Source: Saprospiraceae bacterium (GTDB taxonomy: Bacteria; Bacteroidota; Bacteroidia; Chitinophagales; Saprospiraceae). From it: a stretch of 38,929 nt of DNA. Shown one piece after another: positions 1 through 17,820 of the stretch (its first letter is position 1; every line of letters starts with the position of its first letter). The notes beneath the pieces are model-generated. The model had not been told where the DNA came from, did no database searches, and saw only the letters and a program-made list of their open reading frames with translations. The position numbers and the translations under genes are program-made. The stretch covers positions 1 through 38,929 of the forward strand of contig JANWXM010000030.1 of the NCBI GenBank assembly GCA_025055285.1. The letters are read 5' to 3'.

Positions 1-465
1 TTTATCGAAGAAGCGCTGCTAAACCCTACCGCTGATTTTCGACAGATAGCGCACTCGCAGCGATACCTTTCCTGGGCAGGTTTCAGCTATGAAAATGTTT
101 GCCTCACCCACCTCCACCAGATTAAACAAGCCTTAGGCATTAGCGGCGTTCATACAGGTATTTACACGTTCTATGCCCTGCCTGAAGACGGATTGCCGGG
201 TGCTCAGATAGACCTCATCATTGAACGGGCCGACCGATGCGCGCATTTATGTGAGATTAAATTTTCTAAGGCGCCCTACGCACCCAGCAAGACCGAAATA
301 GACCAATGGAAAACACATCAGACCGTCTTTCGCTATCACACAGGCTATAAGTTTCATCTCTTTACCACCTTAATCACTACCTTTGGGGTGGCTGGAAACG
401 CAGCTGCGGGCATGGCCGATCAGGTGCTCACATTGGAGCACCTCTTCCAAGAAGTTGCCGCGTAG
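1..465 (+). CDS. AAA-family ATPase, C-terminal fragment (5' end outside window)
   Basis: Frame 1 is open from the first base to a TAG at 463-465 and gives 154 residues with no start in view, so the gene is truncated by the window edge. The fragment contains the features of the C-terminal half of Bacteroidota ATPases of the DUF234/AAA_14 type: W-A-G-F-S-Y-E-N-V-C, then an IKQALGI segment, then a PD-(D/E)XK-like core QIDLIIERAD...CEIKFS, in which D, E and K are spaced as in nuclease folds. The tail LITTFGV is also typical. The P-loop half would lie upstream. In this family the nuclease-like tail is of uncertain activity; many members are found near mobile or toxin-like loci, but nothing here shows mobility. 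I am confident in the family and not in the function. Confidence 0.8.
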   Translation, partial: FIEEALLNPTADFRQIAHSQRYLSWAGFSYENVCLTHLHQIKQALGISGVHTGIYTFYALPEDGLPGAQIDLIIERADRCAHLCEIKFSKAPYAPSKTEIDQWKTHQTVFRYHTGYKFHLFTTLITTFGVAGNAAAGMADQVLTLEHLFQEVAA

Positions 466-2058: not shown

Positions 2059-2493
2059 TTATCGCTTTTCCTCCGTTGCTCTAAGCTCTTTCAAATCCCT
2101 TTGACTTTCTGCTAATCGCTTGATATACAGTAAAAATAGTGTGGCCTCAGACTCCTTTCGCGCGATAGTCTCCTTTGAACAGCTGCAGAGAACTTCCCCC
2201 TGAAATCGGTCTTCGTGGCTCCCTAAAAACTTCGCCAGATGGGCGTAAAGAAGCGCATAAGCCTGCGGGCTGGAGAGGACGGCATTCGTAGCCTGCCCTT
2301 CTTGTTTTCCTTCGTTTTTACTCATTTGCGCTGTGATGTACAACACTGCGCGGCACAAGCCCTGGCTTCCCAAGAGAAGCAGGGCCTTTTGCACGGCATT
2401 GAGGTAGGGCTTAGGATCTTTCCCTGCGATATCGCGTTGGAAATGCGCAAGAGCTTCAAGGGCGATTTCACGTTTAAGGGTAGCGATGCTCAT
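2059..2493 (-). CDS. Second Cmr5-like small subunit (Cmr5b)
   Basis: This 144-residue protein is mostly helical and closes the Cmr operon. Residues 29-100 (YLNAVQKALLLLGSQGLCRAV..., then YALLYAHLAKFL) match the Cmr5 plan: a helix ending in NGL/QGL, then a Y-x-x-L-x-x-x-L helix. The C-terminal E-A-T-x-F-x-L-x-x-I-K-R-L-A-E matches the same place in the other Cmr5 of this operon (ATLEAIRFLEDLKRVA). Cmr5 is the alpha-helical small subunit that lines the Cmr4 filament and helps hold crRNA and target. Its start overlaps the cmr4b stop by ATGA, so the two are translationally coupled. Sequence similarity to Cmr5a is low, so this is a diverged paralogue rather than a recent copy. The assignment rests on pattern and context. 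Confidence 0.65.
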   Translation of the reverse strand: MSIATLKREIALEALAHFQRDIAGKDPKPYLNAVQKALLLLGSQGLCRAVLYITAQMSKNEGKQEGQATNAVLSSPQAYALLYAHLAKFLGSHEDRFQGEVLCSCSKETIARKESEATLFLLYIKRLAESQRDLKELRATEEKR

Positions 2494-3386
2494 GACGATA
2501 AGGAGTGGTTGTTAGAAGGGAAATACCAATTCAGGGTGCAAAAGCCTTTGCCGAGCGAGGCATTGCCGCCTATTCGGATGCAGCGAATCTGTTGACTCAA
2601 TTTATTTTCAATCTCCTGCTGTTCTCTGTCAGGCATAGAGAAGGCCAAGGCGTATAACACTGTATTGGCAGGCAGGTGTTCTTCAGAAAAAAGCAATCCT
2701 CCGCCGGTGGCTCGTGTGGCGTCGTGAATTTTATTTCGGACGTGGATCTCTGTGTAGCGCAGGGTGAACTCGCGCAAATTCTCATCGGAGACGATAACCA
2801 AGTGCTCCGCTAGTGCTTCCAAGGATTTTAACAGCACCACTTCACACTGCCAGGACTCCACCTGGTTCTTTTCGAGTCGTTTGTCTATGGGAAAAGAGTA
2901 GTTTTGAAGGATTAGGTATTTGTCTGAGGCCAGGCGTTGGCCGGCATACACGGCGCTATCACCGATTTGATGGCCTAAGGCCGCAAAAAAATCTCTCGAA
3001 GCATCGGTTTCCTTACCATGGCCAGTCAGCTTTGCCTCGTGCCAAAACTTGTGCAACACGGAGGGGCTAGTCACCCAGGCCCAACCGCCTACTGCTGAGC
3101 GCACAGGAAAGAAGAGCAAGCGAACGTCTGTGAAGTTGAGGCAACCGGATGCGCTTCCTCCATTGCTTACATCCGTCTTGCCGAACAACTCCTCGGCGTT
3201 TTTCGCTAGACCGTACTCGCGCAGAGCGCCTTTAAGGGCATTGCTGCTGATCTTGGGCAACTGCGTATGGACATCGCGGTGGATAGGGCGGTCGAGAATA
3301 TGACTGCCTCCTGCAACGCCGGCATGTAGCGGCGTGAGCGTGCGCAAACCGAGAAGCGCGCGGAAATAGTCGGGCGTGTGGCTCAT
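2490..3386 (-). CDS. Second Cmr4 (Cas7) backbone subunit (Cmr4b)
   Basis: The 298-residue RAMP protein has the Cmr4 landmarks. The N-terminal strand L-R-T-L-T-P-L-H-A-G-V is followed by a loop ILDRPIHRD, whose D32 is at the place of the target-RNA cleaving aspartate of Cmr4. Then come LPKISSNALKGALRE and, near the C-terminus, the glycine-rich loop I-R-I-G-G-N-A-S-L-G-K-G-F. LNFTDVRLLFFPVRS around residues 83-97 is also a strong Cmr4 feature. It follows the CARF nuclease gene by 6 bases and overlaps cmr5b by ATGA. The operon already has a full cmr4 upstream, so this is a second, clearly different backbone subunit. Whether both occur in one filament or in alternative complexes cannot be told from sequence. 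Confidence 0.85.
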   Translation of the reverse strand: MSHTPDYFRALLGLRTLTPLHAGVAGGSHILDRPIHRDVHTQLPKISSNALKGALREYGLAKNAEELFGKTDVSNGGSASGCLNFTDVRLLFFPVRSAVGGWAWVTSPSVLHKFWHEAKLTGHGKETDASRDFFAALGHQIGDSAVYAGQRLASDKYLILQNYSFPIDKRLEKNQVESWQCEVVLLKSLEALAEHLVIVSDENLREFTLRYTEIHVRNKIHDATRATGGGLLFSEEHLPANTVLYALAFSMPDREQQEIENKLSQQIRCIRIGGNASLGKGFCTLNWYFPSNNHSLSS

Positions 3387-3392
3387 AGCGAG

Positions 3393-4721
3393 TTACCGGA
3401 TGTTTAATATCTCTTTAAGCGCGGTTTCAAAATCTTTTTCATCCCGGCCATCCAGCGCGAGGATGGGCAGTTGGGCCCGGCGAGCAGCGCGAGCAGCCTG
3501 GACAGAAGCACCATATGCCCAGTCTCCTGATAAATCATTGAGCTTATTAATCTGCTCCTTCAGCAACGGCGTCAGCAGCACGGGTTTGCCGTACACTCCG
3601 GCAATGGCGTAGGTGGTGTATTTGGTGCTCTTGGCTACGTCGCCAGACATCTCGCCGCTCTTGACTTCAAACACAACCAACTGACCCGTTCGGGTGAGCA
3701 CGACGATATCGAGCTCGTCTATAATGTTGCCCTCTGCCTCCTGTTGTTTTTGCGCATCATCGTAGTACAGGCGCACATTGACGGCCATCTTGGCAATATA
3801 GTCTTTGGCGACGCTCCAAATTTTGCAGGCAAACATCTTCTCTAAGAGGTAACCAAAGGGACGGGCGTGGGACCCATGGGCTAAAATCAACTCAACTTCT
3901 TCATCTAATTCGGAAAAATAATTTTTTGGCTCTTTGGAAAGCACTGACTTTGTAAGGTAGGTAAAGTTGTCCCTTTGGTCAAAGTAGTCCTTACTCTTGT
4001 TCAATCCAAGGAGTTTCTTACGTAGATGCTCCTTTCCTACATATTTTTCTGCCAAACTTAGATATGAACTCGACTCCTTTATTTCAGTAGGTTTAGTTTC
4101 ACTAAGTTCTCCTTCAAATCCCATCAATTTCAGAGCAATGGACAGGGTGAGGTATTCTGAGTTGTTGGCTATGTTGTATCGCTGCATTCCGTGTTCGGCA
4201 TCGGGTATCTTTTCCAGTTTTCCCTCGTCATTCACGCGCAGGAAAGTCAATTGCCCCGCATTGCCTTCTAAATACATTACGATATCGTCCTTTCGGTTGG
4301 CTTCTTTGAGCAATTCAAAGACGGCCATGACAAACGGCCGCTGACCACCCGTGATGTTCCAAAGCACTCGCTTGCCATTAGCTTCCTTTCCAAGTACCTC
4401 CCGAATCGCGTCTACATTATTCACGTCTAGGATTCGGACATGTTCAGAAGGAAGATGAAAGCGAGCGGAGTTTTGTTTCGGTAGACTATCTAAGGCTCTC
4501 TTTAGGTTTTCATCAAACTGCTTGTTTTGAGGGTCGCCTTCTAAGGTCACGTATATTTTAGGCTTTTTAAAGTCGAACAATAGCATAGGCAGGTAATTCA
4601 CCATCTGGTTGAGGGTGGAGAACATGCAGTAGGTATAATTCTCAGCAATTTCTTTTTGCCAGCTGGACACTTCTTCTCCTTTTCGTTGAGCATCTTGCTC
4701 GCTTTTTGCCTTAGTTGCCAT
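3393..4721 (-). CDS. CARF domain - PD-(D/E)XK nuclease, Can2/Card1-like
   Basis: The 442-residue protein is a probable cyclic-oligoadenylate-activated nuclease. The N-terminal half is CARF-like: L-W-N-I-T-G-G-Q-R-P-F-V-M-A-V-F-E-L at residues 120-137 corresponds to the ligand-binding NxTGGTK-M loop and following helix of Can2/Card1 proteins. The C-terminal part carries a DUF1887-like PD-(D/E)XK core: G-Y-L-L-E294, then E336-L-D338-I-V-V, then F-E352-V-K354-S-G. Proteins of this type are activated by cyclic tetra-adenylate and cut single-stranded nucleic acid or nick supercoiled DNA. Length fits (Can2 about 450). The gene starts at ATG 4721, overlapping cmr3 by 11 bases; a TTG 18 bases further upstream is less likely. 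Its place between cmr3 and cmr4b makes it part of the Cmr operon, not a loose neighbour. Confidence 0.82.
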   Translation of the reverse strand: MATKAKSEQDAQRKGEEVSSWQKEIAENYTYCMFSTLNQMVNYLPMLLFDFKKPKIYVTLEGDPQNKQFDENLKRALDSLPKQNSARFHLPSEHVRILDVNNVDAIREVLGKEANGKRVLWNITGGQRPFVMAVFELLKEANRKDDIVMYLEGNAGQLTFLRVNDEGKLEKIPDAEHGMQRYNIANNSEYLTLSIALKLMGFEGELSETKPTEIKESSSYLSLAEKYVGKEHLRKKLLGLNKSKDYFDQRDNFTYLTKSVLSKEPKNYFSELDEEVELILAHGSHARPFGYLLEKMFACKIWSVAKDYIAKMAVNVRLYYDDAQKQQEAEGNIIDELDIVVLTRTGQLVVFEVKSGEMSGDVAKSTKYTTYAIAGVYGKPVLLTPLLKEQINKLNDLSGDWAYGASVQAARAARRAQLPILALDGRDEKDFETALKEILNIR

Positions 4722-5772
4722 AATAGGGAGTAATTTCAAATTGATTGAATCCTCGAGTATTTAGGCCGCAACCGATGTATTCTTTAGCCTTCTGCGCCGT
4801 GCATCTGCCTTCGTCGCCCGTGTATTCCAAGATATAAACGCTGCCCGCTGGCGCCAGCATGACTTTGGGTTTGGGGCGACCTGCCTTCAGGTCGAAACCG
4901 CCCGAGAGGTAAGGCTTGCCCGTAACGCCCGCCTCGACGGTAAAGGGTTTTCCGTCTAAAAATGCCGGGTATCCTTGCCGATTGAGCGGCGCTGGCGAGG
5001 TCAGGTATATCTTGAAGAAGCTGACTTCGTCGTCAGGTGGAGATACGGAAAGCATCTGCTTAAGTACTCTCCCTTTTTCCGACGTGTTGCTCCAGACCTC
5101 GAAATGCGCCATTTTACCTTCGCCGCCTATCTTTAGGATGCCCTCTTCGGGCAGGGTTTCTGAACAGTCCGCTTCGACAACGAAGCGATAGCCAGGCGCC
5201 AATTGAGAGAGACGGATGGTGTATAGCATGCCCTCAGCCGCTGCACGCCGGTCAGGGTCGCGGGAGAGGCCGATTTTTAACTCTGTTTTTACGTACGTAT
5301 CTACCGCCTCTATTTTAGCCGAAAACCAGCGGTCAGCTCCGAGGTAATCTCTCAGACTGCCCACTGACATCAGCTTCTGCTCCGAGGGCTCTACTTCCTC
5401 GTCTGTCTCTGGTTTTAGCAACACGTTTTTCCCCTCTGCGCGCAGAAGGTATTTTTTCTCGTCTTGCCAAAAGAAGCGGTGGTGACACAGTGCACCATGG
5501 TCTGTCTGAAAGATATCTAAAGGCGCTGGTAGGAACAGTTGCGTCAAATTCTCGCCCATCAGGAAGATGCGTCCGATTTTAAGTGCATCCAGAGGGGTAC
5601 TCCTATCTCGATACCAAAGCTGAGAGAAGAGGGCGCCCCATACCACTCCGGGTTGAGGCAGCAGGTCGGCGTCGGTCCACGTGTCTTCGCCCATGTTGAA
5701 AGGGCGGCCTTTGCCGAAGAAGAGGCCATCTAAGGGCGTTATGCAGATGTACTTTTGCGCTTCGATAGTCAT
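4711..5772 (-). CDS. cmr3: Cmr3 (Cas5-group RAMP) subunit
   Basis: The 353-residue product matches Cmr3. The start C-I-T-P-L-D-G-L-F-F-G-K-G-R-P-F-N is the family's PLDxLxFRxGRPF motif, and L-L-P-Q-P-G-V-V-W-G-A-L-F-S follows as the FPPxPxxxxGALR counterpart. Near residues 285-320 is the G-G-F-D-L...P-K-P-K-V-M-L-A-P-A-G-S-V-Y block found in the C-terminal half. Cmr3 binds the 5' tag end of the crRNA and pairs with Cmr2 at the base of the Cmr complex. Its ATG overlaps the cmr2 stop (ATGA), consistent with strict co-production. Nothing is missing from the domain. Confidence 0.9.
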   Translation of the reverse strand: MTIEAQKYICITPLDGLFFGKGRPFNMGEDTWTDADLLPQPGVVWGALFSQLWYRDRSTPLDALKIGRIFLMGENLTQLFLPAPLDIFQTDHGALCHHRFFWQDEKKYLLRAEGKNVLLKPETDEEVEPSEQKLMSVGSLRDYLGADRWFSAKIEAVDTYVKTELKIGLSRDPDRRAAAEGMLYTIRLSQLAPGYRFVVEADCSETLPEEGILKIGGEGKMAHFEVWSNTSEKGRVLKQMLSVSPPDDEVSFFKIYLTSPAPLNRQGYPAFLDGKPFTVEAGVTGKPYLSGGFDLKAGRPKPKVMLAPAGSVYILEYTGDEGRCTAQKAKEYIGCGLNTRGFNQFEITPYYGN

Positions 5773-7646
5773 AAGTTGGTATGCTTGGCGACTAACTCTG
5801 CCATTTTGAGAAATCGGATGAAGTTGTCCATGTCTAGATACTTACCGGCATCTCGTATCTGCTCTTCTAAAAGGGAGATCAGTAGCTCGATAGTTATTGT
5901 GACTTTTTCTTTTTCCTCTCGATTGTCGGCAACGGGTTTTTTCTCTTTTGCCCGTGCCATGAGTCGCTGCAGCTCCCAAAGGGCAAACTGGCGGATGTGC
6001 TCTTGCTCTTCCAAAGTAGTTTCGCCGTGAAAGCCCATGTCGGCCATGTTTTGGGCAAACTGGAAGATAAATTTTGGAGAGTATTTTTTTCTTCGCAGGG
6101 CCTCGAATAGATTATAAAGTAACGCCAGCTTGTCCTGTTTAAAATACACGGTGGTAGTGGCGCCGCTCTTCGTCATAAAGCAACAGGCCACGGCGTTTTT
6201 GCCTTCGGCTTTAAAGCGCTCTTTGGCCGCTCGCAGCTCTGCCCTTGCAGTTCTGACAGCCCGACTCAGCGGCGCTTTGTAGTGGCTGATGACAAAAGCG
6301 GTGGAGTAAGTGAGCGGTAGGCCGCAGGAATTCCATTTTTCCTCTATTTCTTGCAGAATGGGAAACAAGCGTTGCAGGTTGAGCATCAGCAAAAAGTCGT
6401 CGCCGCCAGCGTAGAGGACACGGCCTAAATCGTCTTTTGAAACGACTTCCTCCACTGCCAGTGCAAACTCGTGCAACTTTTGGGCTACTTCTTCCTGACC
6501 CGCCCTGTCCTTTTGCTGAGCCATGTGTTTGCCCAAGCTATCTACGTCTACAGCTACTAGCGCATAATACGGGTGAAGACTAGCGCCTTGTCTTTTCACC
6601 GTTTGCTCGAGAGCTCGCTGTACTCGTATGACCTCTTCGATGTCCTTCTCTAGAACGCCGGCGCTTTGCAGAGCATTCCTCGTGCAGTTTTCTGCAAAAA
6701 GGAACTCTTCGTCGTGTTTTTCGAGTAGTTCACTAAGCTTTTCCCGCTCGGGAGCGCCTGAAAACATAGAGAGGGCATCAGCCGCAGCGACGTAGGCCGT
6801 TGATGGAAAAAGTTTTTTTCTTTTTTCTCCATTCTTTTCAGGGTATTTCTGTTTCCACGCGTCTCTGTTTTCTAAGATTTTCCCTACCTCATCTGGTATG
6901 TAACACCGCTTGAAGAAACTTACAGCCGACAGGCCCTCGCCAGGCTGAATGAGCCTGGGAGAGATTTGAGCGTCGGCAGAGGGAATGATGTGCACTTCCG
7001 ACTTTGTTAAAAACAACTTGTTATTCAGAAAGTCGCTCTTTTCGCTTGCGCGCTGGCGATAGATTTTCACGTTCCGCTCCCCGTCAACAATGCATTTTCG
7101 GCCGGTTTCGCCGAGAAAATCGCGTTCAAACATGTGGTATTCCTGCAGCGCATGCTGATAGGCCATTTGCTTGGGAGTGCGCATGTACTTGCTCATGCCA
7201 AACACTAACTCGGCGCGGCGGAAACTTTCTGCGTAGTTGGTTTCATCATAAGGTGAAAAAATCCAATAAATTTCTAAATGCGTCTCTAATTGCTCCTTTA
7301 AGCCCTTAACGTGAGTGAGATCAACTCCGCCTAACCCAGTTTGCATCGCCATTATGCCCTCTTCTGCGAAGCGATCCCTGACTGCCTTTTCCACAGACGC
7401 ACCCATTTTTCGCGCCTCTGCCTCATTCTCAGTTGCTACAGTACCTACAAAGCGGTTGGTGATTGAGGCACTTTCAATTTTTGGAAAGATGACCGTTCCA
7501 CCCTTGTCGCAAAATACCAATGCGGCATACCGGCAATAGTCCGACACCATGCGGCAGCCCGAGTAGAGATCCTGTGCCTTGCGCGCCTGGGCGATAAAGC
7601 TCTGCACCGGGCCTATGGAGAAAATGAAGAAGTATTGCTGGCTCAT
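5769..7646 (-). CDS. cmr2: Cas10/Cmr2, cyclase type, HD domain absent
   Basis: The 625-residue large subunit begins almost directly with IGPVQSFIAQARKAQDLYSG (residues 11-30), which in ordinary Cmr2 lies after an N-terminal HD nuclease domain. There is therefore no HD domain, and single-stranded DNA cleavage by Cas10 is not expected. The palm domain that makes cyclic oligoadenylate is intact: Y-A-L-V-A-V-D-V-D-S-L-G-K at 361-373 and L-Y-A-G-G-D-D-F-L-L-M-L with GGDD at 414-417. Loss of HD with a kept GGDD points to defence by second messenger, matching the CARF nuclease two genes downstream. The gene overlaps cmr6 upstream and cmr3 downstream by ATGA. Confidence 0.93.
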   Translation of the reverse strand: MSQQYFFIFSIGPVQSFIAQARKAQDLYSGCRMVSDYCRYAALVFCDKGGTVIFPKIESASITNRFVGTVATENEAEARKMGASVEKAVRDRFAEEGIMAMQTGLGGVDLTHVKGLKEQLETHLEIYWIFSPYDETNYAESFRRAELVFGMSKYMRTPKQMAYQHALQEYHMFERDFLGETGRKCIVDGERNVKIYRQRASEKSDFLNNKLFLTKSEVHIIPSADAQISPRLIQPGEGLSAVSFFKRCYIPDEVGKILENRDAWKQKYPEKNGEKRKKLFPSTAYVAAADALSMFSGAPEREKLSELLEKHDEEFLFAENCTRNALQSAGVLEKDIEEVIRVQRALEQTVKRQGASLHPYYALVAVDVDSLGKHMAQQKDRAGQEEVAQKLHEFALAVEEVVSKDDLGRVLYAGGDDFLLMLNLQRLFPILQEIEEKWNSCGLPLTYSTAFVISHYKAPLSRAVRTARAELRAAKERFKAEGKNAVACCFMTKSGATTTVYFKQDKLALLYNLFEALRRKKYSPKFIFQFAQNMADMGFHGETTLEEQEHIRQFALWELQRLMARAKEKKPVADNREEKEKVTITIELLISLLEEQIRDAGKYLDMDNFIRFLKMAELVAKHTNL

Positions 7647-8974
7647 GATTTGGATCGCTTGATCTCTTGAAGTGAGGCAGACGTGATTTTCTCGCCCTTG
7701 CCATCTACTTGAATTGTTACTCTAATGACGTCGTTGATCTTTAGGCTTTGTACGCTACCGTGTACAACTATATTTTTGTATATTTTGCCTCCATAACCAT
7801 ACACTGTTGCTTTACAGGGCTTTCCGGGCGCAGTAACTATTGCGTCAAAAGTTTCTCCGCTTTTTAACTTTTTGCCTGGCGAACCAGATTTAAATTCTGG
7901 CTTAAGTTGGGTAGCACTTGAAGGGTTTGCTTCTGCAGCACTCGCTGCATGCTGGGGCCGTCTCATGCGCCCATAACCCACTGCCGTCTTAGCGCCTACG
8001 CCAGACTCAAAGAGGGCCTCTTGCAGCCACTCTTTGGCTGTTCGGAGCAGGTCTTCATCTTCCTTTTTGATGCCTCCTCGCGGGATGATGCCCAACAAAA
8101 ACTGGAATTCTACCTCTCGCATCGTCAGGAAGAAGATAGGTCTTGGACTGAGCCAGTCGGCAGGCGGCTTTTTAGCCTCGTAGTACTCGGGATAGTGGTT
8201 GTTCATAATATCGGGCTGAAGCATGCCTTCTTTTAGGCTAGTTGGATAGGCATCGAAAAAGATGACGCGGCCTTGTTGGAAAGCTTCTTTTTCGTCATTA
8301 GGGTTGCCAAAAATTTGGATTATCTGGTCTTTATCCTTGTTATTTGCTACGGCCCAATGCCGGGTCATGCCCTTGAGCGAGGAGCCAGGCAGGTAAGGGA
8401 TACCGTAGGTAGGGTGAAAAGTAAAGCCGTTTTCGTATACCGACTCATTGCCTAAGCCAATGGCAACGCGCCATTGGGCAGTGAGTTTGATTTCTTCGTG
8501 GGTAGAGAAAAGGGCTTTGGCAGCTGTATTATAGTCCGACAAGAACTGGTTGTACTGTTTTGTCAACACATCGGAGATGTTCCATTCTTGGGTTAGGTCT
8601 AATAATAAGTACTTTTTATCTTCGTCATTGTTCGCATCTTCTTGAGAAGAGCGCCCTTCCTCTTCGGGTTTGCCCTTTTTTGAGGAAGAAGAGAGCTTTT
8701 CTTCCTTCCGCTTCGGCTGTTGCTTGATCTTAAAGTGCGCTTTGATCTCCTTACTTTTGTCTACATCTTTATTTTTATTCTTATTTTCATCTTCATCTTC
8801 ATCTATTAAGCTAAGAATCTCGCCAAATTCAGCGCTAACATTATCCTTCTCGGCGAAATGCGCCATGCGGTTGAACAGCAGGGCAAAGTTGTCCACTTTT
8901 TCTATCAATTCTTCTCTTACATCTCCAGGCAGTGCCGTATACTTTTTTATGTCAAATAGATTGCTCTTACTCAT
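7643..8974 (-). CDS. cmr6: Cmr6 (Cas7-like) subunit with extra C-terminal domain
   Basis: The 443-residue product has the Cmr6 core at about 160-338: L-G-N-E-S-V-Y-E-N-G-F-T-F-H-P-T-Y-G-I-P-Y, then P-G-S-S-L-K-G-M-T-R-H-W-A, and finally G-V-G-A-K-T-A-V-G-Y-G-R, where most Cmr6 proteins end. Two additions stand out. Residues 57-122 are a highly charged, low-complexity stretch rich in D, E, N and K. Residues 339-443 are an extra tail: a linker rich in A, S and P, then a beta-rich segment (GETFDAIVT...KATVYGYGG...LKINDVIRVTI) that looks like a small OB-type barrel. Cmr6 caps the crRNA 3' end of the filament. The start overlaps cmr5a by 8 bases. The core assignment is firm; the tail fold is my inference. 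Confidence 0.9.
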   Translation of the reverse strand: MSKSNLFDIKKYTALPGDVREELIEKVDNFALLFNRMAHFAEKDNVSAEFGEILSLIDEDEDENKNKNKDVDKSKEIKAHFKIKQQPKRKEEKLSSSSKKGKPEEEGRSSQEDANNDEDKKYLLLDLTQEWNISDVLTKQYNQFLSDYNTAAKALFSTHEEIKLTAQWRVAIGLGNESVYENGFTFHPTYGIPYLPGSSLKGMTRHWAVANNKDKDQIIQIFGNPNDEKEAFQQGRVIFFDAYPTSLKEGMLQPDIMNNHYPEYYEAKKPPADWLSPRPIFFLTMREVEFQFLLGIIPRGGIKKEDEDLLRTAKEWLQEALFESGVGAKTAVGYGRMRRPQHAASAAEANPSSATQLKPEFKSGSPGKKLKSGETFDAIVTAPGKPCKATVYGYGGKIYKNIVVHGSVQSLKINDVIRVTIQVDGKGEKITSASLQEIKRSKS

Positions 8975-9455
8975 CTTTCTTATTGTTTTTACTGTGATAC
9001 AATCGGGCGTCTGCTACTCGCTTGAGGTCTTCTAAGAAGCGGATAGCCTCAAGGGTAGCGCAGCGGATTTCGGCGCTCTTCATTTCGTAGATGCATTTAA
9101 TCGCTTTTTGTCCAGTTTTTTGCACGTGCCCTCGATAGTTTAGCCATTTCGTCAGGTGTTTGATAATTAGCTGATACACATTCTCTTCATTCTTTTCCTT
9201 GTTTGCTTTGCCTAAGGTGAAAAGCAGCGCTGCCGTCAGGCCGCTGTTCAGCACCAGCATGGCGAAGGACTTGACGTACTGGTGATAGGTGTTGGCTATT
9301 TCTTCTGGCGCCCCTTTATTCAGCCTGCACCGAGCAGACGGCGTGAGTTGCCGTCCATTCTGTGTCAGGTGTTTTTCCGCCTTCTCAATCACCTCTTGCA
9401 CACAATTATTGGCGCACCTTAGGCGCTGTTCCGCGATGCTCTCGAGTCGTATCAT
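8967..9455 (-). CDS. cmr5: Cmr5 small subunit (Cmr5a)
   Basis: The 162-residue helical protein is Cmr5-like. It contains A-N-T-Y-H-Q-Y-V-K-S-F-A-M-L-V-L-N-S-G-L (the helix ending in NSGL that marks Cmr5), then V-Y-Q-L-I-I-K-H-L-T-K-W-L, and a C-terminal helix with R-C-A-T-L-E-A-I-R-F-L-E-D-L-K-R. The start at ATG 9455 overlaps the cmr4a stop (ATGA); the 31 codons readable upstream of it lie inside cmr4a and are not needed. Cmr5 stacks along the Cmr4 filament. It is the partner of cmr4a in gene order, just as cmr5b follows cmr4b. Confidence 0.87.
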   Translation of the reverse strand: MIRLESIAEQRLRCANNCVQEVIEKAEKHLTQNGRQLTPSARCRLNKGAPEEIANTYHQYVKSFAMLVLNSGLTAALLFTLGKANKEKNEENVYQLIIKHLTKWLNYRGHVQKTGQKAIKCIYEMKSAEIRCATLEAIRFLEDLKRVADARLYHSKNNKKDE

Positions 9456-10444
9456 TGTTTTTCTTCGTTGAATAAGAGTTCGACAATACCCTTGCCGATG
9501 GAAGCATTGGCGCCAAGCTGGAGAAACCGGCGAGTTTGGCCCTTCCAACCCTCCGTTTTAAAGAACTTCAGCACGTCTTCAGCCGTATTGAAATCGTTCG
9601 GCAAGGCTTTTCTTTGGCTTCCTTGGTGTTGGTCATCTCCCTGGGCTTCTGGCTGTCGAGGCTTGTCGGCCAGCACGATGCTATACAGCAGGGTCTCTGG
9701 GGGTAAGTACTCCTCTGTGAAAAGCGCCCCTTCTTTCACTGTGCCGGTTTTATCGTCAATGGCGTTGCGTGTAACGCGCTCCGTAAACAGTTGGGTGAAG
9801 TCGGCAAAGACGTCGTCGGAGAGGATCACTAAGCGCGTCAAGTCGCCAGGGATAAGTCTACTCAGCGCTGATATTACTTCGCTTGGGATGGGAGTATGTT
9901 CAAAAGGGTACTCCTCTAATATCACCCTTTTTTTGTCGTTGAGAAAAATCAAAGGGCTGTTGCTGTCTCCTAAGCATTTATCGTCTTCCACTTTCACAGA
10001 TTTCAACGCATCGCCGAGGGCTATTCCCGCTAACAACTCTGCGTCTTCCGCTAAGCGCCGCAGCACGTAGGGGCAGGTAGTTAGCGCGAACACTCCTTTC
10101 ATGGAGCGCACTGGAAAAGCGAGCAGGCGAGCATCAGTAAAGGTGAGTGCGCCGGTGAAAAATTGGGCGTAACTATTCGCATCGCCGTCGTCCGAGAAAG
10201 ACTCGTTTACTTCGTAGTCACTCCTTTCGTCATAGCCAAAAGCCAGGTGGATTTTGAGCGGGCAGGCGCCGAGTTGCTCTAGGCGGCTGCGCAAGGCGCC
10301 CTTCAGGGTAGAGGCCTCTATCTTGGGATAGCCGGTAACCACCTCGCGCTGAATAGGGAGGTCCACTAAGCCATTGTCGCTTCCAGCGCCGGCGTGCAGC
10401 GAGGTGATCACGCGAAGGGTGAGAAAGGTTGATCTGGTATGCAT
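9452..10444 (-). CDS. cmr4: Cmr4 (Cas7) backbone subunit (Cmr4a)
   Basis: The 330-residue product is a textbook Cmr4. The N-terminal V-I-T-S-L-H-A-G-A-G-S is followed by G-L-V-D28-L-P-I-Q-R-E, where D28 is the target RNA-cleaving residue, then TGYPKIEASTLKGALRSRLE. L-T-F-T-D-A-R-L-L-A-F-P-V-R-S-M lies at about residues 95-110, and F-L-Q-L-G-A-N-A-S-I-G-K-G near the C-terminus. The protein forms the helical filament that holds crRNA and cuts bound RNA every six nucleotides. ATG 10444 is chosen: it lies 19 bases after cmr1, and the alternative start at 10489 would add residues before the first strand. It is longer than Cmr4b by about 30 residues, with insertions in the middle. Confidence 0.93.
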   Translation of the reverse strand: MHTRSTFLTLRVITSLHAGAGSDNGLVDLPIQREVVTGYPKIEASTLKGALRSRLEQLGACPLKIHLAFGYDERSDYEVNESFSDDGDANSYAQFFTGALTFTDARLLAFPVRSMKGVFALTTCPYVLRRLAEDAELLAGIALGDALKSVKVEDDKCLGDSNSPLIFLNDKKRVILEEYPFEHTPIPSEVISALSRLIPGDLTRLVILSDDVFADFTQLFTERVTRNAIDDKTGTVKEGALFTEEYLPPETLLYSIVLADKPRQPEAQGDDQHQGSQRKALPNDFNTAEDVLKFFKTEGWKGQTRRFLQLGANASIGKGIVELLFNEEKQ

Positions 10445-10463
10445 TATGCCAGGTTGTTTTGTA

Positions 10464-11606
10464 TTACCGCTTGAAAACCAGATAGGCATTATCGCCCACT
10501 ATTTTCAGAAACTCATCTAAAACTGAGTCGTCTTGTTTGGGCCATGAAAATGACCGTCCCTTCGAGTCTTTGAATGACAAACTACTCTCCTGTTCCATAA
10601 AATCACCCTCTAGTTTCGACACAATCCAGTGAGTCCTCCTCGTGCATTTGGCAAGCGTGATCCAGAGAGGCGATGCTCTGCGGTCATATAAAGGTAGGTT
10701 TGAACCTTCCCGGACAGGGGCGAAGTTTACTACATTATCTCTTTCATTTCTAACGGAAACGGGAAGACCGAAAGCTGCCTTTTGATGTAATGTCTTTTGT
10801 GTAAATCGCGGCTTTTCACTGCTGACTTTAGGATCAGGACGTCTGGGTTGTCGTATCCTCAACATAAGCCCGCCAATTTCCTGCAGCGCATTCTCCCACG
10901 TATCAAATTTGCTTTTGCTGACCCATATCTGCTTCCCTATAGTGCTGTATCCCCTCGGATGTTCTGCTGCCTCAGGTACGTCAAAGATTCTCTGTGCTGC
11001 TCCCAGACCTTCCCGCAGGAGGTCAACGAATGCCTTATCGGGCGAAAAGGAAATGCCTGCGGGCAAATCGAAGCCCTCATGTCCTACAACCTCAAATGCC
11101 CCTGCGCCGCGGCGGGCTCGTGTGCCCAATGCTCCGAAATACGTTAATGTCCAAAAAGCGGCAATGTTCTTTTCGAGGGCATTCTCATGCCCTTCTTTGC
11201 AGCGAAACGTAACCTGGAAAGGGAAGTCGGGAGCGATTCCTTCTTTTTCCTTGTTGTGTACAATAAGGGTGAATAGTAGGTACTTTAAACCCTCCCTTTT
11301 GCTCCGCAGGGCATTTCCATTAATCAGCCAGTTTTTAGATGAGGTTACAGGCTCGTGATGTATTTCTATTGATACCTCACTTTTCTTCTGGACAGTAAAT
11401 GCGCCCCCCATGAGCTCTTCATCGTGCCTTAACAACTTTTGAGGAAGCTCTCGCTGCTCCTCAAAGATCCAATGTCTAGCAATTGCTCTTTCCCAAAACC
11501 TCAGCGCTCCTTTCAAGCTGGGCGGGCGCAGTTCTGCCTTGTCTGGGTCGGCTCCTCCAATGAACATGGGGCTGATGGTGCGGCAATGAAAGGTGATGTG
11601 CGGCAT
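10464..11606 (-). CDS. cmr1: Cmr1 (Cas7-like) RAMP subunit, first gene of the Cmr operon
   Basis: The 380-residue protein has the Cmr1 signature at its N-terminus: C-R-T-I-S-P-M-F-I-G-G-A-D-P-D-K-A-E-L-R-P-P, followed by S-L-K-G-A-L-R-F-W-E-R-A. Further in, Y-F-G-A-L-G-T-R-A-R-R-G-A-G-A-F-E at about 154-170 is the glycine-rich RAMP loop. Cmr1 sits with Cmr6 at the crRNA 3' end and is needed for RNA-target recognition. It is the most upstream gene of the operon; about 500 bases without a convincing gene separate it from ctpA, and a -7-like box lies 58 bases before its ATG. Confidence 0.92.
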   Translation of the reverse strand: MPHITFHCRTISPMFIGGADPDKAELRPPSLKGALRFWERAIARHWIFEEQRELPQKLLRHDEELMGGAFTVQKKSEVSIEIHHEPVTSSKNWLINGNALRSKREGLKYLLFTLIVHNKEKEGIAPDFPFQVTFRCKEGHENALEKNIAAFWTLTYFGALGTRARRGAGAFEVVGHEGFDLPAGISFSPDKAFVDLLREGLGAAQRIFDVPEAAEHPRGYSTIGKQIWVSKSKFDTWENALQEIGGLMLRIRQPRRPDPKVSSEKPRFTQKTLHQKAAFGLPVSVRNERDNVVNFAPVREGSNLPLYDRRASPLWITLAKCTRRTHWIVSKLEGDFMEQESSLSFKDSKGRSFSWPKQDDSVLDEFLKIVGDNAYLVFKR

Positions 11607-16479: not shown

Positions 16480-17820
16480 TTACTTCTCCTTGGGCGATTC
16501 AGTAGCCTTTTTAGGCAGTGGATATCGCTCAGCAGGCGCGGTCTGTAAGTTTGGATTCCGCAAGCGCGATTCCGTTGGAGCAGGAATATTGTCGGGTCGC
16601 GGTCGTAATTGAGTCTGGGCGGGAGGCGTAGTCTGGCCGGAGATAGGTGCTTCTACCCGACCTTCTAGCACTGGAAATAACCTCATGCGCTGTAAGATAT
16701 CGGGAGGTAGAGCATTCACATGCATCGTCAGCGAGATGGTATTCATCCGCACGTAGGCATCGGAGGCGTACAAGTAACCTTTTCGCTCTGAAATCTCGCC
16801 CCAAGAATTTTTGACCACGTAAAAGAGACCGCCGTGGGTTTCGTTTACTATACCTGTGATGTGCATTAAGTGGTCATCTTGAGTCTCCAATCGGTCAAAA
16901 GCTTTCTGACGCATTTCTTGAGTGATGACCTTTTCCGGTTCCCAATATTTAAACACGGCGGCAACTTGCTCGGGAGTTTTATTTTTCCAGTCTACATCAG
17001 GCACAATAGCTAGCCCTTCTTTAGCGGAAAATCCTGGATTACTTATGTCTGCATCCCATGCTACAGTGTAACCTCGCTGCAAGGCGTGATTCAGACAGCG
17101 CATCAAGTCATTGAGCGGAAGGTTGTAGTATTGACCGTTGGCGAAGTTGTCGGGTATTTCCAAGACAAAATACGTCCAGAAGGGATGATGGGTAAAGGAG
17201 GTGAGGTGTACGTAATGCTCCGGTTTAATGCCCAGAAAATCGCGAAACGATGTGGGAGTGTACTGAACGCCTTCGTAGACGAAGGTAGTAGGTACGGGCC
17301 CAAATTCATCGTCGAGCACGCGCTCAATCTGAGCTAACCAGTTATCGGCCAATTCATTTCGCTTTGCTTGAGCTATGAAAGTGTCGCAAAGCCGTTTTAG
17401 CGTAGCTTCCAAAGCACCGTGGTCGAGCGGTTTGTTAAGATCTTTTCGACCGGGATAGACACTTTCGGGCACTAGCCCATAGCGTTGGATAGCATTAAGT
17501 TTATCGTGTATTAATCCGCCTTGGCCAAATTGAGCCGCTCCTAAACGGCGGACGTAGTTCTCGCACTTTTGGCGGTAAATGCAGCGCACGGTATACATTT
17601 CCGATAAGTCATGGGCGCCTTTGTTGGTGCGCATCAATTCACTCTCTAGCAGCGAGGCGGCGGCAAAGCTCCAGCAAGTACCTGTGCGTTGTTGGTCCTT
17701 GACCGAAGAGGCAGAGAGGATCTTTACAGGTTTGAATTCGTATGGCTCAGGCTTTTGAGCGTGCGCTAGCAGCGCAAAGGAAACAAAAATGAGCAGACCT
17801 AATCGTTTCTGGTAATTCAT
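16480..17820 (-). CDS. C1B cysteine peptidase (bleomycin hydrolase / aminopeptidase C family), exported
   Basis: The 446-residue protein has a cleavable-looking signal (L-G-L-L-I-F-V-S-F-A-L-L-A-H-A-Q at residues 7-22), unlike the cytoplasmic bleomycin hydrolases, so it is probably periplasmic. The papain-type triad is present: Q-Q-R-T-G-T-C49-W-S-F-A, H in D-D-H-L-M-H-I-T-G, and N in V-V-K-N-S-W-G. The C-terminus has a 70-residue tail rich in P, Q, T and R that is probably disordered. ATG 17820 is preferred because the 18 codons upstream would put residues before the signal peptide. Confidence 0.9.
   Translation of the reverse strand: MNYQKRLGLLIFVSFALLAHAQKPEPYEFKPVKILSASSVKDQQRTGTCWSFAAASLLESELMRTNKGAHDLSEMYTVRCIYRQKCENYVRRLGAAQFGQGGLIHDKLNAIQRYGLVPESVYPGRKDLNKPLDHGALEATLKRLCDTFIAQAKRNELADNWLAQIERVLDDEFGPVPTTFVYEGVQYTPTSFRDFLGIKPEHYVHLTSFTHHPFWTYFVLEIPDNFANGQYYNLPLNDLMRCLNHALQRGYTVAWDADISNPGFSAKEGLAIVPDVDWKNKTPEQVAAVFKYWEPEKVITQEMRQKAFDRLETQDDHLMHITGIVNETHGGLFYVVKNSWGEISERKGYLYASDAYVRMNTISLTMHVNALPPDILQRMRLFPVLEGRVEAPISGQTTPPAQTQLRPRPDNIPAPTESRLRNPNLQTAPAERYPLPKKATESPKEK

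What the first reader, a model, noticed from the sequence alone, without database searches (positions are those of the whole stretch)
2059..10444. Type III-B operon with two different Cmr4-Cmr5 pairs
The operon encodes cmr4a-cmr5a near its start and cmr4b-cmr5b at its end, after the CARF nuclease. Both Cmr4 proteins keep the aspartate at the RNA-cleavage position (D28 and D32) and the glycine-rich C-terminal loop, but differ in length and much of their sequence, so this is not a recent copy. Standard Cmr operons have one of each. The second pair could build a mixed filament with different spacing, cap a longer crRNA, or form an alternative complex using the same Cas10. I do not recall this layout as a described III-B variant.
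Basis: partly seen in the sequence, partly recalled or inferred. Interest (0 to 1): 0.85.

Follow-up and report, generated by a model that had tools for sequence, protein, structure and literature searches.

The report
CRISPR operon with two backbone pairs
A bacterial RNA-targeting CRISPR operon carries two distinct versions of the backbone protein pair that normally comes in one version, and the same layout occurs in a second, named bacterium, so it looks like a real, rare variant of a known immune machine rather than an accident.

Summary
A nine-gene minus-strand type III-B operon (window 11606 down to 2059) reads cmr1-cmr4A-cmr5A-cmr6-cas10-cmr3-CARF/PD-(D/E)XK-cmr4B-cmr5B. Profiles and predicted folds place the last two genes in Cmr4 and Cmr5. 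The Cmr4s are about 33% identical; both keep the catalytic residues. The same order recurs in Phaeodactylibacter luteus, another genus of the family, with A and B orthologues 58% and 52% identical, so the B pair is old and retained. It is rare: 2 of 74 Cmr4-bearing contigs in three surveys. Of 41 annotated loci with cas10 and cmr4, 40 have one full Cmr4, after cas10. Spacers beside the P. luteus operon are ordinary, 33-37 nt, which speaks against a longer crRNA. Cas10, Cmr3 and CARF lie closest to canonical III-B loci with the same CARF gene; other genes do not clearly, so a mosaic origin is possible. Best reading: one Cmr complex with a mixed backbone, as solved for type III-D, and not found described for III-B in the papers searched. 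Complex composition is inferred, not shown. New variant of a known kind.

The parts
   Evidence: TIGR01894 55.2 bits, cut-off 28.65; PADLOC Cmr1
9452..10489 (-). cmr4A; start probably at 10444 (M16 of the longest frame)
   Evidence: TIGR02580 199.8 bits; P. luteus orthologue 57.7% identical, its start aligns with M16
8967..9455 (-). cmr5A (from the ATG at 9455; the longest frame begins further upstream), overlaps cmr4A by 4 nt
   Evidence: PF09701 66.4 bits; junction
7643..8974 (-). cmr6
   Evidence: TIGR01898 148.7 bits
5769..7646 (-). cas10/cmr2, GGDD at residue 414, no room for an N-terminal HD domain
   Evidence: TIGR02577 100.8 bits; PF22335 palm, and PF12469 from residue 8; motif
4711..5772 (-). 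cmr3
   Evidence: PF09700 134.6 bits, over cut-off; TIGR01888 89.7, under its cut-off of 100.4
3393..4739 (-). CARF protein with PD-(D/E)XK-like motif (NITGG at 128; ELDI...FEVK from 342), probable cOA-activated nuclease
   Evidence: PADLOC CARF4--CARF_PDDEXK 282 bits; motifs; no Pfam or NCBIfam match at 0.01; no PDB sequence match
2490..3386 (-). cmr4B
   Evidence: TIGR02580 162.5 bits; fold matches; P. luteus orthologue 52%
2059..2493 (-). cmr5B, overlaps cmr4B by 4 nt
   Evidence: PF09701 23.6 bits; model pLDDT 84.7, PDB fold matches

Best explanation
The locus encodes one type III-B (Cmr) effector whose crRNA-binding backbone is built from two different Cmr4-Cmr5 pairs instead of one. SHOWN: nine intact genes with tight junctions, two Cmr4s with the catalytic residues, one each of Cas10, Cmr3, Cmr6 and Cmr1, the same order in a second genus. 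INFERRED: Cas10-Cmr3 hold the crRNA 5' handle; Cmr4B-Cmr5B (encoded after cas10-cmr3-CARF) sit on the foot side and Cmr4A-Cmr5A (encoded with cmr1 and cmr6) on the head side next to Cmr6-Cmr1; both Cmr4s cut bound target RNA at 6-nt steps; the Cas10 palm makes a second messenger that switches on the CARF nuclease. In the window's genome crRNAs probably come in trans from arrays elsewhere. The second pair was gained once before the two loci separated, either by copying a cmr4-cmr5-cmr6 cassette or by joining parts of two III-B operons.
For: Same nine-gene order in P. luteus (record named), the nine proteins 42-58% identical. The B genes differ between the two genomes about as much as the rest of the operon, third codon positions most (Cmr4B 0.38/0.30/0.62, Cmr4A 0.33/0.25/0.62), which suggests purifying selection (no dN/dS was computed). 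A and B form separate supported clades (100/99 and 100/100). One cas10, one cmr3, one cmr6 in both loci, so any complex with B must share them with A or do without. H21, D32, K52 and E235 of Cmr4B and the counterparts of Cmr4A align with the residues that PMC5965380 (passages seen) names for Pyrococcus Cmr4 (H15, D26, K46, E227; alignments). Ordinary spacer length predicts an ordinary number of backbone sites. Precedent: the III-D complex of Saccharolobus has a backbone of several different Cas7s in strict order, its four backbone types all essential (PMC9945777, passages seen).
Against: Nothing here shows that A and B meet in one complex. Departures of A and of B from positions conserved in 39 single Cmr4s do not avoid each other: of 68 positions A departs at 5, B at 13, both at 2, where about 1 shared is expected by chance, so there is no sign of complementary loss. 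B is much the more derived (stem 1.79 against 0.67; it lost a Glu and a Ser that are 39 of 39 in single Cmr4s), which also fits a separate role. Only two loci were found, so no co-evolution test is possible. Cmr4B's place among Cmr4s is unresolved. P. luteus has a second cmr1, which could serve a second complex.
Confidence: 0.5

Rival explanations
1. Two alternative Cmr complexes share Cas10, Cmr3, Cmr6 and Cmr1: one with Cmr4A-Cmr5A, one with Cmr4B-Cmr5B, perhaps differing in target cleavage rate and so in how long Cas10 signals, or in resistance to anti-CRISPRs.
For: Pairs are present together, each Cmr4 with its own Cmr5. A and B differ at many conserved positions. P. luteus even has two different cmr1 genes.
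Against: Caps would have to fit both backbones; in both genomes gene order puts one pair with the head genes and one behind the foot genes, which separate complexes would not require (inference).
Confidence: 0.27
2. The second pair is a by-product of operon fusion or transfer with little function of its own; the B pair is partly redundant.
For: Patchy distribution suggests transfer: P. luteus is the only one of 6 genomes of its genus with two Cmr4s, and none of 36 other genomes of the window's genus showed a second Cmr4.
Against: Both B genes are intact in two genera at 42-52% amino-acid identity, with third codon positions differing most; catalytic residues are kept.
Confidence: 0.13
3. The B pair builds a longer filament on a longer crRNA.
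For: Two backbone genes could allow more subunits.
Against: Spacers in the arrays flanking the P. luteus operon are 33-37 nt (12 and 9 spacers), those of the window genome's C16 array 34-36 nt (40 spacers); the other arrays near the fetched loci average 31.5-40.3 nt.
Confidence: 0.05

Closest known systems
Canonical type III-B (Cmr) of Bacteroidota, in particular L043 (G329) and L041 (G412 contig C36), which carry a homologue of the same CARF gene between cmr3 and cmr4
   Same: cmr1, cas10, cmr3, CARF, cmr4, cmr5, cmr6; Cas10 and Cmr3 of the dual loci group with them (supports 97.9 and 99.2)
   Different: One Cmr4-Cmr5 pair only; order cmr1-cas10-cmr3-CARF-cmr4-cmr5-cmr6
Type III-D SsoCsm of Saccharolobus solfataricus (PMC9945777, passages seen)
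   Same: Backbone made of several different Cas7 proteins
   Different: Another subtype with four backbone Cas7 genes plus a cap; there the mixed complex is solved, here it is inferred
III-G, III-H, III-I and other rare variants in the 2025 classification (PMC12669027, passages seen)
   Same: The III-G model in a figure legend uses two different Cas7 genes
   Different: [quoted passage not shown] here GGDD is intact. No III-B form with two Cmr4s in the passages seen
Can2/Card1-like CARF nucleases (names recalled, from no call)
   Same: CARF plus PD-(D/E)XK architecture by PADLOC profile
   Different: No sequence match to any solved chain at E 0.01

Membership tests
Type III-B CRISPR-Cas | cas10/cmr2, cmr1, cmr3, cmr4, cmr5, cmr6 in one locus | tested here: met
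Type III-B CRISPR-Cas | Cas10 palm with GGDD | tested here: met
   GGDD at residue 414
Type III-B CRISPR-Cas | A single Cmr4 and a single Cmr5 gene (usual, not defining) | tested here: not met
   Two of each; likewise in P. luteus
Type III-B CRISPR-Cas | Cmr4 catalytic Asp (target RNase) | tested here: met
   D43 (D28 from M16) and D32; activity itself not testable here
Cmr5 (for the last gene) | Profile match and helical fold | tested here: met
   PF09701 over its cut-off, TIGR01881 under its own; fold
Effector with heteromeric Cas7 backbone, as in III-D | Different Cas7s in one assembled complex | not testable with these tools
   Only single chains could be folded; purification needed
CARF-PD-(D/E)XK effector (Can2/Card1-like) | CARF domain and nuclease motif | tested here: met
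   PADLOC CARF4--CARF_PDDEXK 282 bits, motifs
CARF-PD-(D/E)XK effector (Can2/Card1-like) | Activation by a cyclic oligoadenylate | not testable with these tools
   bench assay needed

The most novel reading that the evidence does not exclude
The operon is a fusion of two III-B systems: the foot genes (cas10, cmr3, CARF, cmr4B, cmr5B) from one lineage and the head genes (cmr1, cmr4A, cmr5A, cmr6) from another, giving a chimeric Cmr effector whose filament changes subunit type part-way, with position-specific Cmr4s on one crRNA. Type III effectors could then evolve by swapping half-filaments.
Probability: 0.25. Interest if true: 0.7.

Novelty: new variant of a known kind. Interest (0 to 1): 0.5.

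Why it matters
Most type III effectors repeat one Cas7 along the guide (so written in PMC9945777). A III-B operon with two conserved, divergent Cmr4-Cmr5 pairs suggests that the repeat can be split into position-specific subunits in III-B as well as in III-D, a possible step towards fused single-protein effectors. It makes testable whether different backbone positions have different jobs (cutting, timing of Cas10 shut-off, anchoring to foot or cap), and P. luteus KCTC 42180, a named strain, carries the operon beside a cas6 gene and two arrays.

Tried and rejected
Longer crRNA: disfavoured on spacer lengths. In that call I left out of the range two low-complexity repeats of L032 that are not CRISPR-like (spacings 38.2 and 50.5); arrays lie within the fetched stretches and are not proven to serve the operon. 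Recent tandem copy: rejected, 33% identity and separate clades. Complementary loss of conserved residues as proof of division of labour: tested, not above chance.

Chimeric origin, for and against. Cmr1 alone would suggest it (grouping with L041/L043 rejected, p-AU about 1e-80; with L040 not rejected, 0.548; with L028/L070/L071/L051 without L040 rejected, 5.6e-7). But in a control over single loci Cmr1 disagrees with the other genes in about half of cases (its nearest locus is among Cas10's best three in 15 of 33, whereas Cas10's is among Cmr3's in 32 of 37), so Cmr1 is poor evidence. What remains: Cas10 and Cmr3 with L041/L043 (97.9 and 99.2; with L040 p 0.0081 and 0.0363). The Cas10 grouping depends on the set: with the long-branched L064 included the only starred set holding the window row was the pair with P. 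luteus. By raw scores Cas10's nearest loci are L072 and L049 for the window, and L043 barely ahead of L072 for P. luteus. Cmr6 is undecided, L040 slightly better than L041/L043. Cmr4A is not with L041/L043 (p 0.0324, uncorrected), nor shown with L040 (0.0921; with L040+L044 0.323). Cmr4B is unresolved (with L041/L043 0.16, with Cmr4A 0.271; with L028/L070/L071/L051 0.553, with L040 0.0979). The groups were chosen after seeing scores and trees.

Searches that found nothing: Cmr4B alone in genome contigs and viral contigs, the Cmr4B pair in viral contigs, phage records. The Myxococcota locus L046 proved a single-Cmr4 locus. 30 plasmid records matched Cmr4B, 30 places in all, so one each. The promoter and terminator scan gave about what shuffles give. 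No array in the window.
Full report
WHAT IS THERE. The minus strand from 11606 to 2059 holds nine genes: cmr1, cmr4A, cmr5A, cmr6, cas10, cmr3, a CARF/PD-(D/E)XK gene, cmr4B, cmr5B. Gaps between neighbours run from -29 to +6 nt with the longest frames, or +19 before cmr4A if it starts at 10444. The finding's span (2059-10444) leaves out cmr1; its end, 10444, is the likely start of cmr4A (M16 of the longest frame), which aligns with the P. luteus orthologue's start. Cmr5B is the weakest call: PF09701 at 23.6 bits (cut-off 21) but TIGR01881 at 21.6 (cut-off 27.9), and the P. luteus Cmr5B has no PADLOC match at E 0.01, although it matches window Cmr5B at 61 bits. Its predicted structure (pLDDT 84.7) has Cmr5 structures or chains of III-B complexes in PDB ranks 1 to 19, best E 1.1e-3 (chain names partly). 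Cmr4B's model is poor (pLDDT 59), yet ranks 1-26 are Cmr4 structures or chains of III-B complexes, in line with its 162.5-bit profile score.

THE TWO CMR4S. They are 33% identical. Both keep the residues that PMC5965380 (passages seen) gives for Pyrococcus Cmr4: a potential catalytic centre H15, D26, E227, and K46 for crRNA binding. These align with H21, D32, E235 and K52 in Cmr4B and their counterparts in Cmr4A. Against 39 single Cmr4s from the loci fetched (divergent rows L035, L036, L067 and L068 left out), 68 positions are conserved at 80% or more. Both orthologues depart from them at 5 positions in A and 13 in B, 2 of them shared. B is the more derived, losing among others a Glu and a Ser that are 39 of 39. 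The overlap expected by chance is about 1, so this is no evidence of complementary specialisation.

DOES IT RECUR? Yes, once among the genomes searched. Identities of the nine proteins to the window's are 43, 58, 52, 56, 53, 57, 50, 52 and 42% in operon order, so the B genes are about as conserved as their neighbours; third codon positions differ most in each gene.

Surveys with the Cmr4 profile, by my count of rows of 89 bits or more: 37 contigs in 396 genomes of the order, 29 in 395 of the phylum and 14 in 395 of the class, 74 different contigs in all. Two of them, the window's and P. luteus's, hold two such Cmr4s. Several contigs are short and could hide a second copy. A survey of 398 family genomes with the Cmr4B pair as query gave 36 genomes with matches and no further double locus (at most 5 candidates per genome were scored). 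Among 6 genomes of the P. luteus genus only P. luteus has it. None of 36 other genomes of the window's genus showed a second Cmr4.

Gene order: I annotated 44 fetched loci, chosen by me from the strongest matches and including P. luteus; hits under 25 bits other than Cmr5 were dropped. 41 have both cas10 and cmr4 (recount). In 40 there is one Cmr4 and it follows cas10, with cmr3 found between them in 37; the exception is P. luteus. One of the 40, L030, has besides its full Cmr4 an 89-aa frame whose first part repeats the start of that Cmr4 (dropped by the 25-bit limit): a fragment beside an inserted gene, not a second pair. Other phyla were sampled only through the plasmid set (30 records, one place each), phages (none) and one Myxococcota locus (single).

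AGE AND ORIGIN. In a tree of 48 Cmr4s, A and B are clades of two (100/99, 100/100), with stems 0.67 and 1.79. The gain of the second pair is therefore older than the split of the two loci. Cas10 and Cmr3 group with L041 and L043 (supports 97.9 and 99.2), which with P. luteus are the only 3 of the 44 loci with a homologue of this CARF gene; the Cas10 grouping was not seen in the tree that included the long-branched L064. Cmr1 groups instead near L040, and grouping with L041/L043 is rejected, but a control shows Cmr1 is commonly at odds with the other genes. Cmr6 is undecided with L040 ahead, Cmr4A is not with L041/L043 (p 0.0324, uncorrected), Cmr4B is unresolved. One genome, G412, carries both the L040 and the L041 operon, so such parts can meet in one cell. 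Two histories fit: a copied cmr4-cmr5-cmr6 cassette placed between cmr1 and cas10 with loss of the distal cmr6, or a fusion of two operons. I lean weakly to a mosaic, without proof.

HOW IT PROBABLY WORKS. Cas10 has GGDD and no room for an HD domain (Cmr2_N begins at residue 8), so it should signal rather than cut DNA. The CARF protein has an NITGG motif and a PD-(D/E)XK-like motif, so it is the probable effector; its activator is not known. With one Cas10, Cmr3, Cmr6 and (in the window) Cmr1, and with cmr4A lying among the head genes and cmr4B behind the foot genes in both genomes, I think a single mixed filament most likely (0.5), alternative complexes less so (0.27). Head and foot are used as in PMC5965380 (passages): Cas10-Cmr3 at one end, Cmr6 and Cmr1 at the other. 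Spacer lengths speak against an extended filament: the P. luteus arrays on both sides of the operon have 37-nt repeats and 33-37 nt spacers, the window genome's C16 array 34-36 nt, other arrays average 31.5-40.3 nt. The window has no array; its genome has 211 copies of one repeat, and an array and Cas1 on contig C16, so crRNAs are probably supplied in trans.

COMPARISON WITH WHAT IS KNOWN. By gene content it is type III-B. [quoted passage not shown] The 2025 classification (PMC12669027, passages) models III-G with two different Cas7 genes but, in the passages seen, has no III-B with two Cmr4s. Searches for two Cmr4 genes in one locus, for Phaeodactylibacter with CRISPR, and for Cas7 duplication found no description of this layout (listings only). 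The library holds only open-licence papers, so a description elsewhere is possible.

VERDICT. Real, conserved in two genera, rare; a new variant of III-B. Mechanism inferred. Interest 0.5.

Noticed in passing
G000 contigs C4 (L026), C22 (L027), C16 (L076): The window's genome has at least three more CRISPR loci: a III-C operon (Cas10c 731 bits), a III-A-like operon followed by two CARF-HEPN (Csx1/Csm6-type) genes, and a locus with Cas1 and an array that looks like type I-B by inspection only.
   Followed up: partly
L037 14156-14497 and 15997-17118: P. luteus has a second, different cmr1 and, between cmr1 and cmr4A, a 113-aa gene that looks HEPN-like (HepT type, by eye; no PADLOC match), perhaps an inserted toxin-antitoxin pair.
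   Followed up: no
L030 (G047:C49) 9863-10905: A zeta-toxin-like ATPase and a small partner gene (by eye) sit just before cmr4, and behind them lies an 89-aa frame that repeats the first 40-odd residues of that Cmr4, as if the insert had copied the start of cmr4. P. luteus also has a small insert just before cmr4A.
   Followed up: partly
L037 2223-3932: Downstream of cmr5B in P. luteus lies a CARF-HEPN protein fused to a Csx20 domain (363 bits), a second signalling effector not seen in the window operon.
   Followed up: no
L037 5065-5556 and 3939-4430: Two 163-aa genes without a PADLOC match between cmr5B and the CARF-HEPN gene in P. luteus.
   Followed up: no
L037 about 459-860 and 17134-17336: Two stretches of short TTTCATACTTCCC-like repeats in P. 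luteus, one beyond the downstream genes and one between cas6 and the first cmr1; origin unexplained.
   Followed up: no
window 193-465: Fragment near the contig edge that looks like the nuclease-like end of a DUF4143-type ATPase (by eye, no search).
   Followed up: no
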